From Sphingobacteriia bacterium (GTDB lineage: Bacteria > Bacteroidota > Bacteroidia > NS11-12g > UBA9320), in assembly GCA_008080835.1 (NCBI GenBank), contig VMDK01000124.1:1-55675 (forward strand): 55,675 nt of DNA, written 5' to 3'. Each line of letters starts with the position of its first letter. Position 1 is the first letter of the stretch. This document shows, piece after piece, positions 28,925 to 33,609 of this stretch. The notes under the pieces were generated by a model that did no database searches, was not told the DNA's origin, and saw only the letters and a program-made list of their open reading frames with translations. The translations under genes were made by a program, and so were the position numbers.

Positions 28925-30187
28925 TCAATTCGCAAAGCCTATCGGTCCATTCAGATCGGTCAAACCGAACAACCTTCGTATATTATCACGAACACTATTG
29001 GAGTATTTCTCATTGAAGTCTGGTACGTCCTGGAATTCAGGTCGACTAAGAATACCGTTCAATAGTACGAGTATTTGCGAAGCCATTTCCTCCAACCGGT
29101 TCACTAATGCAGTACCCGAGATCTCGGCATCATATGCCATTGCTATCCAGTCTTCTCGCTGGATTTGATCGACGTCGAATTTGCCATTTACTGACATTGC
29201 GAGATCAGTAGATAATTCAGGATACATTGATGTGCAAACTAGATCATATCCACTCGCAAGACGAGGTCCCATACTATCGTGAATAATAGAGTAATTCTTT
29301 GCGTGTGCGTCACAATTACCAATGAGGACATTGAATAAGAATATTCTTGTGAATTTTTCGATGTCTAAAGCCGGGACAAGAAATCTATCCCTGATCAATC
29401 TCAGACATCGAACAAATCCAGGACCTCCTTCTTTTTCATACTTTGCCGAATGCATTACACACAATGCCTGGCTAAAATCCTCCTGATGAATGCGTTCCGG
29501 TCCGGACTTTCCCCATTCCCGGTCGTACCGATCAACAACATAACCTGTAGCTCCGTTAATTTTTATCAGTCTGATTTGCGGTATTGCGATCCCAGTCTTT
29601 TCAGCTAAGATCATAGTTGCATACTCATTGAAGGGAAGTTGACCATAAGTGACACTATCCGGTTTGAGTATCACATTACTTGGTGCTCCATTTTTGGGCA
29701 AAAAGTATGTGCCTCTCTCTAGATAAAGGGCTGTCTTTGGTTGCGCACCTGCAATAGAGAGCCTCACATTCTTTTCTGAATGCAGGTACGGTTGAAGTAA
29801 TCGATCTTTAGTCAACAGTACATACAACTCGTTCTCCGTAAGCTTGGCAAATGACCAACGCTCTTGAGGCAGGGACTCAATTATGCGTACTGCACCAATG
29901 CATTCTTTTCCCAATTCACTGAGCAAATGAAAATGGTTGGATGTAGATATGTTGATCGCCCTTGCAATAGACGCCTTTTCAGCTTCTTCAGGCAGCAATC
30001 CGGTAAAATATGCATGGGCAGCTCCACCATAGTATTCTTGATCGGTCAACGGCAATGATAGTGACAGCGGCTTGCCACCTTTCTCTACATAGTCATCGTC
30101 GTAAGAGAAGGACAAGGTGCCGTACTTGTCTACGCTAAGCCTCCCTACTAGATCTTCAGCTAGAAATACGTTTATCGAATTGGTCAT
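28925..30187 (-). CDS. hipA: HipA family serine/threonine kinase toxin
   Basis: 'VRLSIAGAQPKTALYL', 'VILKPDS', 'FLFNVLIGNCDAHAKNYSIIHD' (catalytic Asp), 'LASGYDLVCTSMYP'; follows a HipB-type regulator with a 32-nt overlap. Confidence 0.93.
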   Translation of the reverse strand: MTNSINVFLAEDLVGRLSVDKYGTLSFSYDDDYVEKGGKPLSLSLPLTDQEYYGGAAHAYFTGLLPEEAEKASIARAINISTSNHFHLLSELGKECIGAVRIIESLPQERWSFAKLTENELYVLLTKDRLLQPYLHSEKNVRLSIAGAQPKTALYLERGTYFLPKNGAPSNVILKPDSVTYGQLPFNEYATMILAEKTGIAIPQIRLIKINGATGYVVDRYDREWGKSGPERIHQEDFSQALCVMHSAKYEKEGGPGFVRCLRLIRDRFLVPALDIEKFTRIFLFNVLIGNCDAHAKNYSIIHDSMGPRLASGYDLVCTSMYPELSTDLAMSVNGKFDVDQIQREDWIAMAYDAEISGTALVNRLEEMASQILVLLNGILSRPEFQDVPDFNEKYSNSVRDNIRRLFGLTDLNGPIGFAN

Positions 30188-30377
30188 TGATGATCATTCG
30201 TAAGCCTAGAGTTTGGACAATGCGAAGTGCTTTCCCAAGCTCACAGGTCTCCTTGCCATTCTCCAGTTCGGAAACAAATCTGGTTCCAACCCCACTGACC
30301 ATTGAGAGGTCTTTTTGCGTGAGCTTGAGTTTTTTCCGTTGTTCCTTAATGATTTTACCTAAATCTGAAGCATTCAT
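30156..30377 (-). CDS. hipB: HipB-like XRE-family antitoxin/repressor
   Basis: 73 aa HTH_XRE: 'LGKIIKEQRKKLKLTQKDLSMVSGVGTRFVSELENGKETCELGKALRIVQTLGLRM'. Confidence 0.92.
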   Translation of the reverse strand: MNASDLGKIIKEQRKKLKLTQKDLSMVSGVGTRFVSELENGKETCELGKALRIVQTLGLRMIINDQFDKRISS

Positions 30378-30395
30378 ATTACCGTTCTGTAATAT
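30376..30395. promoter_or_regulatory. HipB operator-like site 1: ATATTACCGTTCTGTAATAT
   Basis: Near-perfect 20-bp palindrome, centre 30385.5; overlaps the hipB start codon. Confidence 0.75.
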
Positions 30396-30424
30396 TCCAA
30401 CAAAAATAGCGAATATTCCGTCTT

Positions 30425-30444
30425 ATATTACTCTTCGGTAACAT
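30425..30444. promoter_or_regulatory. HipB operator-like site 2: ATATTACTCTTCGGTAACAT
   Basis: Centre 30434.5, exactly 49 bp from site 1. Confidence 0.7.
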
Positions 30445-30473
30445 TTATAAAATATTGGTCCAATAATCTACAT

Positions 30474-30493
30474 TTAATACCGAACGGTAATAA
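30474..30493. promoter_or_regulatory. HipB operator-like site 3: TTAATACCGAACGGTAATAA
   Basis: Centre 30483.5, exactly 49 bp from site 2. Confidence 0.72.
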
Positions 30494-30522
30494 TATGATT
30501 GCAACCTGGTTTATTCATGAAT

Positions 30523-30542
30523 AAATTCCCGAACGGGATATT
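30523..30542. promoter_or_regulatory. HipB operator-like site 4: AAATTCCCGAACGGGATATT
   Basis: Same CCGAACGG core; centre 30532.5, exactly 49 bp from site 3; reaches the stop codon of the adjacent cargo gene. Confidence 0.62.
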
Positions 30543-33500
30543 ATTGACCTCTCTTTGAATCGCGGATCAGAGTCACCGTTCCGGAAACTGTATACTCATC
30601 ATCGAGCTCGAAACGCCAGATCTTGAATATGCTGAAGTACGTTCCTGACGGTAAGTTCTTACCTCCTGTGCGACCATCCCAGCAATCGTAAACACTATTG
30701 GAATGGAATACCCGCTCACCCCATCGATTATAGATGATCCATTCAATGGAATCGCACCCGGGATTCAGTCCGTCCAGACAAAAGAAATCATTGAAACCAT
30801 CAGCTCCCGGAGTGAATACATTGGGAATGAACAGATCATCTCCTCCCTTTGGTGCAGTTTCGATGACAGATGTGGCCGTGTCTGAACAGAGTGTATTCGG
30901 GTTGACGATGAGGGTGGCCGTATAGGTCATACCCGGTTCGTACTGATGCTTGGGATTCTTCTCAGTGCTCGTCTGCCCGTCTCCAAAGTCCCAATAATAG
31001 TCAGGCCCCTTACTGGATGTGGTGAATGACGCCTCATAAACACATGGCTCCAATTCATACTCAAAGGTGGCGTCTTTGTGTCCATACACATAAATAGATC
31101 GCTTGAACACATCCGAGATATTACAAGTATTGGAATCGATCACCGTAAGCGTGACCTCATAGGTGCCGGGTTCCTCATACCGGTGATCCGGCGAGTAATT
31201 GACCGTATCCGTATTCCCATCCCCAAAATCCCAGATGAATTTCGCCTGGGTACGGCTGAAATTCTCAAAGTGCACATCCAGCGGAGCACAGCCCAATGGA
31301 GGATCCGGACGGAAATAGGCATCCACCGCCGTTCGTATCTGAAGATCTATCTTGAAACTCGCATTGCTGCAACGTGGGCTCAAATTGGTCGTGAACGCCG
31401 CATCCGGTGTGACCGGGAAATCTTGTCGTCCACCTTCATTTCCGTTCGGGCACGATGAGCAAACACTCTGATAGATCACTCCTTTCTTATCGAACCGACT
31501 CGTCCCTCCGTCCACATGGTCCGCGGTAGAGTCTCCACCAAAATAGGTCGCATAGAGCAAGCTCTGCGCATCCTTATCCAGGACGATGATGTAAAAATCG
31601 TTCCCGTCAGTTGTGGGTTGTTCTGCATCACTGGTTATCTCGAGGTCTGTGGTCGATCCCGGATGCAGGTCCGGTCGAACTACCGACCCCCATCCGCTCA
31701 TATAGATGTGTTCGCAATTGTCGACCAAGAAGGCCGTCGGCGCGATGTCGATCTGATTATTCCGCACCCCAAAGGATGTCTGGAATTCAATGTTCTGTAG
31801 TGAGGTGTCGATCTTGGCAACAAACTGCCCTTTATTCGATTCGCCATATACTCCGGAACTTGGTTTGATATTTCCTTCAGTCTGACCAGCAACGAAAATG
31901 GATCCTTCATTGTTGATCTCCACAAAATAGATCTGATCATAACTGCCCGTTCCGAAATACGATGCTGCTTTCACTTCTTTGGTTCCCTGATCGAATATCG
32001 CAATGATCCCGTCAATTCCACCGATGCGCTTCTTGTTCAGCACTCCTGTCGTGGTGTGCATGGTATCGCTATTGCTGCCACCACCCACGACTATATTCGA
32101 ATCGACATCCACCTTGATGCTGTACAACGCGTCGGCTCCAGAACCTCCCCAGAACGTACTCCATTCCAATTGACTGAGATCTTCATTGAGCTGGAACGCG
32201 CAGCCTTCCGAGCCTACAATGGTATTGTCGACGGCGTTGACCATCGGGAAGTCGGATGAATTGGTGCTTGATGCGATGTACGCATTGTTGCTTTCATCCA
32301 TGAATATATCACCACGATAGTCATCGGCGTAGTTATACCGCAGACTGCCATTCGAATTCAACCCATCTCTTCCCGACCCTCCAACGAATGTTGATGCAAG
32401 GAGTTGTTTTCCGTCGACACTGAACTTGGACACGATGATATCCGTGTTTCCGTTATGTGTGGTGTCATATGCGGTCAGTGTGAATGGGAAATCGGAACTA
32501 TAGGATGTTCCCATCACCAGGAGTTGATCATTCTTGTCGACCACCAGACTATGAGGATACTCATCTCTGGCTCCTCCCAAATACGTCGCATAGAGCAAAG
32601 TAGTCCCGGCCGAATCGTATTTACTGATCGTGATATCGCAGGCGAGGTTTGCAGGGCTAAGCCCTTCTCCTCCTCCAAACTCGGTCTGATAGGCCCCGGC
32701 TGTCACCGGATACTGTCCAAAATAACCATCCGTGATGCCACCGGCGTACAAGTGTCCTTCGCTATCGTAAGTGGCCGTGAAACCAAAGTTATCGCCCCTA
32801 CTTCCGCTGTAGGTGCTGAAGATGAGCTTGGGGTCTATGCGATATTGTGCATCTGCCGTGTTGGCCATTTGTCCGAAAGACGAAACAGCTTCATATCTAA
32901 CCTCATCCCCAATAATGTTGAAATGGAATTGCGGAAATGGCGCTGTAGGATGTTCAGATAGTGTAATCGGAGGGGTTTCAGTGAGCACACCCAAGGAATG
33001 CGTGATCTTCAGGTATCCTTGCTCGAGACTCATGTCGTCCGCTCCTTCTACACCCAATCTGATCTGCGAAGGATCCGCTCCTTTAGCTACGATCCAGTCG
33101 TATTTCAACGAGCCATCGAAACCCGTATAGAATTCGAGATCGATCCCCGGATAGATCCCGTTCAATCGCATTTTTTCATAGGATCTGACATTAGTTGCGT
33201 GTTTCCGCGCGTCATTTCCATTCACGTAGTAGTTGAAATAGTACGACGTCGGCTCGGTGGGACTGGCTTCAGGAATCTGCCCTTCCAGAAAATGAAGTTT
33301 CAGCACATGAGCTTGTACACGGAATTTCGTTGTGGTGTACTCATTCCGGAAATGGTGGAAGAATTCCAACACCTCATGCTTCTCCTCGGCGTTGTGGAAT
33401 GAATAAGTGAGCCCGTTCCGTTCGATAAAAAGATAACCCGATGGGATCTCTGTACGGAACAGCACATTTTCATGAAACTGCCCTTTGTTCTCTTCAAATA

Positions 33501-33609
33501 AGAATTTGCGCAATCGGGATTCCTCTGCCTGCGCCGACGCTGAAGCGCAGAAAAGCGTGATAATCAGAAGGAAATAATGGATCCGACGCATAAAATGGCT
33601 ACCAAACAA
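30541..33609 (-). CDS. Large T9SS type B (gliding motility-associated C-terminal domain) secreted protein with SBBP-like repeats and PKD domains
   Basis: 1022 aa; signal peptide, DUF7948-like N-terminus, repeated 'YLGGxxxDEYPHSLVVDKNDQLLVMGTSYSSDFP', PKD 'FIWDFGDGNTDTVNYSPDHRYEEPGTYEVTLTV', C-term 'IPNVFTPGADGFNDFFCLDGLNPGCDSIEWIIYNRWGERVFHS...GGKNLPSGTYF'. Confidence 0.92.
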   Translation of the reverse strand: MFGSHFMRRIHYFLLIITLFCASASAQAEESRLRKFLFEENKGQFHENVLFRTEIPSGYLFIERNGLTYSFHNAEEKHEVLEFFHHFRNEYTTTKFRVQAHVLKLHFLEGQIPEASPTEPTSYYFNYYVNGNDARKHATNVRSYEKMRLNGIYPGIDLEFYTGFDGSLKYDWIVAKGADPSQIRLGVEGADDMSLEQGYLKITHSLGVLTETPPITLSEHPTAPFPQFHFNIIGDEVRYEAVSSFGQMANTADAQYRIDPKLIFSTYSGSRGDNFGFTATYDSEGHLYAGGITDGYFGQYPVTAGAYQTEFGGGEGLSPANLACDITISKYDSAGTTLLYATYLGGARDEYPHSLVVDKNDQLLVMGTSYSSDFPFTLTAYDTTHNGNTDIIVSKFSVDGKQLLASTFVGGSGRDGLNSNGSLRYNYADDYRGDIFMDESNNAYIASSTNSSDFPMVNAVDNTIVGSEGCAFQLNEDLSQLEWSTFWGGSGADALYSIKVDVDSNIVVGGGSNSDTMHTTTGVLNKKRIGGIDGIIAIFDQGTKEVKAASYFGTGSYDQIYFVEINNEGSIFVAGQTEGNIKPSSGVYGESNKGQFVAKIDTSLQNIEFQTSFGVRNNQIDIAPTAFLVDNCEHIYMSGWGSVVRPDLHPGSTTDLEITSDAEQPTTDGNDFYIIVLDKDAQSLLYATYFGGDSTADHVDGGTSRFDKKGVIYQSVCSSCPNGNEGGRQDFPVTPDAAFTTNLSPRCSNASFKIDLQIRTAVDAYFRPDPPLGCAPLDVHFENFSRTQAKFIWDFGDGNTDTVNYSPDHRYEEPGTYEVTLTVIDSNTCNISDVFKRSIYVYGHKDATFEYELEPCVYEASFTTSSKGPDYYWDFGDGQTSTEKNPKHQYEPGMTYTATLIVNPNTLCSDTATSVIETAPKGGDDLFIPNVFTPGADGFNDFFCLDGLNPGCDSIEWIIYNRWGERVFHSNSVYDCWDGRTGGKNLPSGTYFSIFKIWRFELDDEYTVSGTVTLIRDSKRGQ

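What the first reader, a model, noticed from the sequence alone, without database searches (positions are those of the whole stretch)
30376..30542. Four HipB operator-like palindromes spaced exactly 49 bp apart upstream of hipBA
Seen directly: ATATTACCGTTCTGTAATAT (centre 30385.5), ATATTACTCTTCGGTAACAT (30434.5), TTAATACCGAACGGTAATAA (30483.5) and AAATTCCCGAACGGGATATT (30532.5). Consensus is ATATTACC-GWWC-GGTAATAT, and the three centre-to-centre distances are 49, 49 and 49 bp, although the DNA between sites is not conserved. Site 1 overlaps the hipB start codon and site 4 reaches the stop of the neighbouring gene, so the array fills the whole spacer. E. coli hipBA is known to have several HipB operators (TATCCN8GGATA). 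The consensus here is different and the constant pitch suggests a regularly phased higher-order HipB/HipBA-DNA assembly. Smaller odd palindromes (TATTGGTCCAATA centred at 30459, AACCTGGTT near 30507) lie at or near the midpoints.
Basis: partly seen in the sequence, partly recalled or inferred. Interest (0 to 1): 0.8.

Follow-up and report, generated by a model that had tools for sequence, protein, structure and literature searches.

The report
Evenly spaced HipB operators upstream of hipBA
The control region of this bacterial dormancy toxin-antitoxin operon carries repeated binding sites exactly 49 bases apart, and the same 49-51-base spacing recurs at related operons in distant bacteria even where the sites read differently, so the spacing looks like a ruler that matches the toxin complex.

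Summary
Palindromes centred at 30385.5, 30434.5 and 30483.5 are the only good matches to their consensus in the window (0.03 expected) and nearly the only ones in the 2.39-Mb genome. The fourth, at 30532.5, lies at exactly the same pitch but is much weaker. They sit upstream of an intact hipBA operon of the Y4mF/TIGR03070 type with a one-piece HipA. A -7 promoter box lies between the two proximal sites.

The spacing is conserved. In 80 hipB loci, triple searches with free spacing (20-80 bp) gave 51 significant arrays; 44 had two equal spacings (null 4.8%). Pitch falls into classes that follow HipA phylogeny with the minimum number of changes: 49-51 bp here and in proteobacterial relatives with other operator sequences; 26-28 bp in E. 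coli-like hipBA; 40-41 bp in Bacteroidota split hipBST. A prediction written down beforehand held in 8 of 9 named plasmid loci with a hipB; the ninth has two sites at 49 bp. Spacers are not conserved, so this is not tandem duplication. The promoter keeps its distance to O2 while O1 moves with pitch.

Best reading: cooperative autorepression by an array of HipB2-HipA2 complexes whose contacts set the pitch. Evenly spaced HipB operators have precedents (Legionella, Caulobacter). The lineage-specific pitch rule I did not find reported.

The parts
30376..30395 (.). Operator O1 (proximal), ATATTACCGTTCTGTAATAT; overlaps the hipB start codon and lies downstream of the -7 box
   Evidence: same position class (-8 to -22 from ATG) in related loci
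30425..30444 (.). Operator O2, ATATTACTCTTCGGTAACAT; 49 bp from O1; its centre is 26 bp upstream of the -7 box, over the -33 region
30474..30493 (.). Operator O3, TTAATACCGAACGGTAATAA; 49 bp from O2
30523..30542 (.). Possible operator O4, AAATTCCCGAACGGGATATT; 49 bp from O3, weaker; overlaps the stop codon of the upstream gene
   Evidence: 5.5 bits, second best of the remaining positions, exactly one pitch upstream; only L120 of the other P50 loci shows a 4th site
30401..30408 (-). Bacteroidota-type -7 promoter box TATTTTTG (TAnnTTTG) between O1 and O2
   Evidence: same distance to O2 in the other Bacteroidota loci where the box is found. Identity as a promoter rests on general knowledge of Bacteroidota promoters
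30156..30377 (-). hipB antitoxin, 73 aa, Xre-type HTH, TIGR03070 (Y4mF-type) above cut-off
28925..30187 (-). hipA toxin, 420 aa, one piece (Couple_hipA + HipA_C); overlaps the end of hipB
30541..33609 (-). Upstream neighbour in the same direction: DUF7948/PKD protein with a T9SS C-terminal sorting domain; its stop bounds the operator array

Best explanation
The palindromes are operators for the operon's own repressor. HipB dimers, alone or as HipA-HipB2-HipA complexes, bind three sites (perhaps a fourth) and shut off the hipBA promoter, whose -7 box lies between O1 and O2. Shown here: the sites, their equal pitch, conservation of the pitch with its toxin lineage across phyla despite changed operator and spacer sequence, and anchoring of the promoter to O2 while O1 moves with the pitch. 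Inferred: HipB binds these sites; binding is cooperative; the pitch is fixed by direct contacts between HipBA complexes on neighbouring operators (probably HipA-HipA), which join repression to holding HipA inactive.
For: TIGR03070 HipB and full-length HipA directly downstream, the only HipA_C protein in the genome. Motif confined to this promoter. Same-family relative L007 (HipB 42% identical) has TACCGNNCGGTA three times at 50 and 49 bp. Of 80 hipB loci, 51 significant triples, 44 equal-pitch against 4.8% in shuffles. P50/P27/P40 pitch classes need 2 changes on the HipA tree, the minimum. P50 spacings are 49 (9), 50 (30), 51 (3), with several unrelated operator sequences. Prediction written before fetching met in 8 of 9 named plasmid loci with a hipB, including y4mF/y4mE of Sinorhizobium fredii NGR234; the ninth has two sites at 49 bp; the one hipA found without hipB has no array. 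Spacers no more alike than shuffled (0.298 against 0.270). The -7 box starts 24-26 bp from the O2 centre in both Bacteroidota pitch classes, but 23-25 (P50) or 15 bp (P40) from O1. Literature: cooperative binding of E. coli HipB to four operators (PMC3376134); [quoted passage not shown] HipB binds evenly spaced operators in Legionella (PMC10653801).
Against: No binding data for this protein. HipB co-inherits with HipA, so HipA contacts cannot be separated from HipB-HipB contacts: pitch needs 3 changes on a poorly resolved HipB tree. E. coli K-12 sites are 28, 39, 28 bp apart, not constant. PMC10653801 suggests that Legionella HipB may fill evenly spaced sites without the cooperativity seen in E. 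coli.
Confidence: 0.72

Rival explanations
1. The sites are HipB operators, but the pitch is set by promoter geometry (one site over the start site, one over -33), with no protein-protein ruler.
For: O1 lies just downstream of the -7 box and O2 over the -33 region.
Against: O1 lies 15 bp from the -7 box in the 40-bp class and 23-25 bp in the 49-bp class while the O2-promoter distance stays 24-26 bp; O3 lies outside the core promoter yet keeps the pitch. The 49-51 pitch is kept in proteobacterial loci, which use other promoter signals.
Confidence: 0.1
2. HipB operators with a pitch set by HipB-HipB or DNA-bending effects alone (the HipBA complex bends DNA), the toxin being irrelevant.
For: HipB alone can repress in hipBST of E. 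coli (PMC10627512) and HipB alone binds all three Legionella operators (PMC10653801). HipB and HipA trees are nearly congruent, so the data do not separate them.
Against: HipB is about 73 aa and is unlikely to span 30-bp gaps by itself; the Bacteroidota split-toxin and one-piece toxin classes have different pitches.
Confidence: 0.15
3. The array is a recent tandem duplication of a 49-bp unit.
For: Exact equal spacing.
Against: Spacer identity is near chance while sites are 79% alike; pitch is conserved over large divergence.
Confidence: 0.02
4. Chance palindromes in AT-rich intergenic DNA.
For: Sites are AT-rich at their edges.
Against: 0.03 expected against 3 found; conserved at orthologous loci.
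Confidence: 0.01

Closest known systems
E. coli K-12 hipBA (four operators TATCCN8GGATA)
   Same: HipB-type HTH antitoxin, one-piece HipA, several palindromic operators filling the promoter; cooperative binding reported (PMC3376134)
   Different: Sites at 28, 39, 28 bp, other sequence, other HipA clade (26-28 bp class)
Legionella pneumophila hipBST (PMC10653801)
   Same: Three evenly spaced HipB operators, bound by HipB in EMSA
   Different: Split toxin; 53-bp gaps between 18-bp sites (71-bp pitch); other sequence
Caulobacter hipBA1/hipBA2 (PMC7029023, PMC8545095)
   Same: Three operators; a series of inverted repeats noted at intervals consistent with the E. coli higher-order complex
   Different: Spacing not given in the text read; no lineage-wide pitch rule stated there
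y4mF/y4mE of Sinorhizobium fredii NGR234 pNGR234a (TIGR03070 family)
   Same: Same HipB family and HipA clade; three sites at 49, 49 bp
   Different: Alphaproteobacterial; core TTCCCGNNCGGGAA
Bacteroidota hipBST-type operons (for example L022, L040)
   Same: Three equal-pitch HipB operators, same -7 box to O2 distance
   Different: Split HipS + HipT; pitch 40-41 bp; core TACCCNNNNGGGTA

Membership tests
hipBA type II toxin-antitoxin, Y4mF/TIGR03070 subfamily | HipB HTH antitoxin above the TIGR03070 cut-off | tested here: met
   78.3 bits, cut-off 71.65
hipBA type II toxin-antitoxin, Y4mF/TIGR03070 subfamily | One-piece HipA with Couple_hipA and HipA_C domains and conserved kinase motifs | tested here: met
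   GAQPKT P-loop with preceding Ser, GNCDAHAKN, YDL aligned to E. coli HipA
hipBA type II toxin-antitoxin, Y4mF/TIGR03070 subfamily | Overlapping hipB-hipA operon | tested here: met
   hipA starts at 30187, hipB ends at 30156
hipBA type II toxin-antitoxin, Y4mF/TIGR03070 subfamily | HipB binds the palindromes and autorepresses | not testable with these tools
   needs EMSA/footprinting and a reporter
49-51 bp pitch class (defined here) | Three palindromes upstream of hipB at 49-51 bp pitch | tested here: met
E. coli K-12-type hipBA operators | TATCCN8GGATA, 28/39/28 bp spacing | tested here: not met
   sites read TATTACCGNNCGGTAATA; pitch 49
hipBST (tripartite) | Separate HipS (about 105 aa) and HipT genes | tested here: not met
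   single 420-aa HipA

The most novel reading that the evidence does not exclude
Operator pitch is a heritable ruler set by the HipA/HipB complex. Each toxin lineage keeps its own pitch (26-28, 40-41, 49-51, perhaps 60-61 and about 71 bp) across phyla while operator sequences and promoters change. Most values keep roughly the same helical phase (27, 28, 39, 49-51, 60.5 and 71 bp are about 0.6-0.85 of a turn past a whole number), so neighbouring complexes keep similar relative orientation and differ in the number of turns between them.
Probability: 0.45. Interest if true: 0.75.

Novelty: new variant of a known kind. Interest (0 to 1): 0.62.

Why it matters
The link between hipBA promoter architecture, HipA inactivation and persistence rests mainly on one E. 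coli operon with irregular spacing. A pitch that is exact within each toxin lineage but differs between lineages suggests that higher-order HipBA assembly on DNA is an ancient, selected feature, and it gives a simple test (phase-shift insertions, HipA swaps between pitch classes) of whether toxin-toxin contacts are the ruler. It also gives a practical way to find HipB operators in any genome.

Tried and rejected
Genome-contig scan with window HipA alone found no relative; with a three-sequence HipA alignment it found only two, because this HipA clade is rare in Bacteroidota. An exact gapped-motif search of 395 class genomes found nothing, so the motif itself is lineage-specific and only the pitch generalises. 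Midpoint palindromes: mean palindromicity at +25 and +75 (3.05, 2.29) is not clearly above background (2.25, sd 0.49 across positions), rejected as a class feature. A fourth operator as a class feature: rejected (background palindromicity at +150); kept as a tentative local feature. A site-like match at +110 inside hipB (8.1 bits; also in L007, L019, L026) sits in conserved HTH codons and is off the pitch grid, so it is read as coding conservation. Tandem duplication rejected. Promoter-geometry origin of the pitch disfavoured. The HipB tree was too short to separate HipB from HipA as the cause. Schumacher 2015 (PMC7502270) and Wen 2014 (PMC4150777) are not held, so they could not be read.

Full report
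OBSERVATION. The four 20-mers are in place with centre-to-centre distances of 49, 49 and 49 bp. A pattern scan for TATTACCGWWCGGTAATA with up to three mismatches gives exactly sites 1-3 in the window (0.03 expected; 0 of 100 shuffles reach three), and only two weaker matches elsewhere in the 2.39-Mb genome. Site 4 shares the CCGAACGG core but scores 5.5 bits on a matrix built from sites 1-3, which themselves score at least 21.6. It is the second-best remaining position between 330 bp upstream and 150 bp into the gene, and falls at exactly one pitch. I treat it as probable at best. The DNA between sites is not alike (6-11 of 29 positions).

CONTEXT. On the minus strand the array precedes hipB (30377-30156, TIGR03070 couple_hipB, 78.3 bits against a cut-off of 71.65) and hipA (30187-28925; Couple_hipA and HipA_C; E. 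coli HipA at E about 1e-37 with P-loop and catalytic motifs aligned). It is the only HipA_C protein in the genome. The upstream gene, in the same direction, carries a T9SS sorting domain, so the host is most likely a Bacteroidota member. A TAnnTTTG box (30408-30401, minus strand) lies between O1 and O2; its reading as the -7 promoter element of Bacteroidota is from general knowledge.

CONSERVATION IN RELATIVES. The nearest relative with a one-piece HipA (L007 = L046, 'Bacterium isolate P03SST1bin.8'; HipB 42% identical) has TACCGNNCGGTA three times at 50 and 49 bp, the proximal one 11 bp before the ATG. A finder that knows no motif, scoring only palindromicity and mutual similarity, gave equal-pitch triples at many loci. 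Viral-contig searches with HipA alignments added proteobacterial-type loci, again at 49-51 bp.

STATISTICS. On 80 deduplicated hipB-like loci, with each spacing free between 20 and 80 bp, 51 had a top triple above the 99th percentile of 3,200 single-base shuffles, and 44 of these had spacings equal within 1 bp; among shuffled top triples the fraction is 4.8%. The seven exceptions are two at 26/28, three that skip one site (54 with 27 or 29), one at 71/73, and E. coli K-12 (28, 39, 28). Eight other Xre-type loci that I judged to lie outside hipBA/hipBST (L010, L011, L012, L014-L018) gave no significant triple. A class matrix recovered arrays that the finder had missed, at the same pitch: 40-41 bp in L008, L009, L029, L031, L039 and two-site L035 and L037; 48-50 bp in L051, L058, L060 and two-site L128; 27 bp in L101.

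PITCH CLASSES. P50: spacings 49 (9), 50 (30), 51 (3). P40: 40 (9), 41 (15). P27: mostly 26-28. All 12 P40 loci have a separate HipS-sized gene after hipB; all 16 P27 loci and the 19 P50 loci with a full toxin gene are one-piece. On a tree of 66 HipA/HipT proteins the three classes need two changes, the minimum for three states. The tree is a quick one with some long branches, and related rows make clustering easy, so the main weight rests on the constancy of pitch within deep clades. Within P50 the operator sequence changes completely (TACCGNNCGGTA, TTCCCGNNCGGGAA, TTTCAANGATCGTTGA, AGATGCNNNNGCATCT, TTGACCCNNNNGGGTCAA) while the pitch does not.

PRE-STATED TEST. Before fetching ten named plasmid loci of this HipA clade I wrote that each should show three sites at 49-51 bp. 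One (Croceicoccus, L144) has an HNH gene instead of hipB before hipA and no array. Of the nine with hipB, eight have three sites at 49-50 bp (Sinorhizobium fredii NGR234 y4mF, Roseibium, Rhizobium, Mesorhizobium, Acidovorax, Novosphingobium, Acidiphilium, Roseovarius) and one (Tistrella) has two sites at 49 bp. For three of the eight (NGR234, Rhizobium, Mesorhizobium) the triple was completed with the class matrix rather than by the blind finder. In Roseovarius the sites fit only if the annotated start is about 50 bp too early. Earlier named loci agree by class: Sphingobium 50, 50; Leisingera and Microvirga 27, 27; Klebsiella quasipneumoniae 27, 27, 27; Citrobacter 28, 28, 27.

WHY A RULER. 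Successive spacers are little more alike than shuffled ones in P50 (0.298 against 0.270; sites 0.79), so duplication does not explain the pitch. In Bacteroidota the -7 box starts 24-26 bp downstream of the O2 centre in both P50 and P40, whereas O1 is 23-25 bp (P50) or 15 bp (P40) beyond it: O2 is fixed to the promoter and O1 and O3 move with the pitch. O3 lies outside the core promoter yet keeps its place. The remaining constraint is between the bound complexes.

MECHANISM. Published work gives the pieces: E. coli HipB binds four operators cooperatively and the HipA-HipB2-HipA complex bends DNA by 70 degrees (PMC3376134); HipA dimerization within operator complexes is thought to be disturbed by the G22S high-persistence change (PMC7029023); HipS may lack the HipA dimer residues, so HipBST assembly may differ (PMC6581861), in line with a different pitch for split toxins. 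I therefore propose cooperative autorepression by HipB2-HipA2 units on O1-O3, with contacts between neighbouring units, probably HipA-HipA, setting the pitch. Binding, cooperativity and the contact are inferred.

NOVELTY. Evenly spaced HipB operators are known in Legionella (PMC10653801) and repeats at intervals fitting the E. coli complex were noted in Caulobacter (PMC7029023). I found no report of lineage-specific constant pitch, but only an open-access library was searched and the two key structural papers were not held. Filed as a new variant of a known kind.

Noticed in passing
L008, L021, L022, L027, L028, L030, L032-L034, L036, L038, L040; upstream of hipB: Bacteroidota hipBST-type operons carry three TACCCNNNNGGGTA operators at 40-41 bp with the -7 box a fixed 15 bp before the O1 centre; L009 and L023 have four.
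   Followed up: yes
L013 and L025, upstream of hipB: A further split-toxin subclass with AGTGC..GCACT-like sites at 60-61 bp pitch in L013; L025 shows similar sites but was not measured.
   Followed up: partly
L144 (Croceicoccus marinus plasmid), 812-2460: hipA of this clade preceded by an HNH gene instead of hipB, with no operator array: a possible orphan or re-partnered toxin.
   Followed up: no
L019 and L026 (genome G088): Two nearby copies of hipB on one contig with 50/49 operator arrays but no full HipA reading frame in the stretch held; the search counted one in-frame stop in each hipB match, and the -7 box of L026 has lost the TA.
   Followed up: partly
all pitch classes: 27, 28, 39, 49-51, 60.5 and 71 bp all lie about 0.6-0.85 turn past a whole number of 10.5-bp turns; the hipBST value of 40-41 (0.8-0.9) is slightly off.
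   Followed up: partly
window +110 of hipB (about 30267): A weak operator-like match inside hipB, also present in L007, L019 and L026, probably conserved HTH codons.
   Followed up: partly
L064, L065: Operators sit at -80, -130, -180 from the ATG chosen for hipB, which suggests that the true start codon lies further upstream.
   Followed up: no
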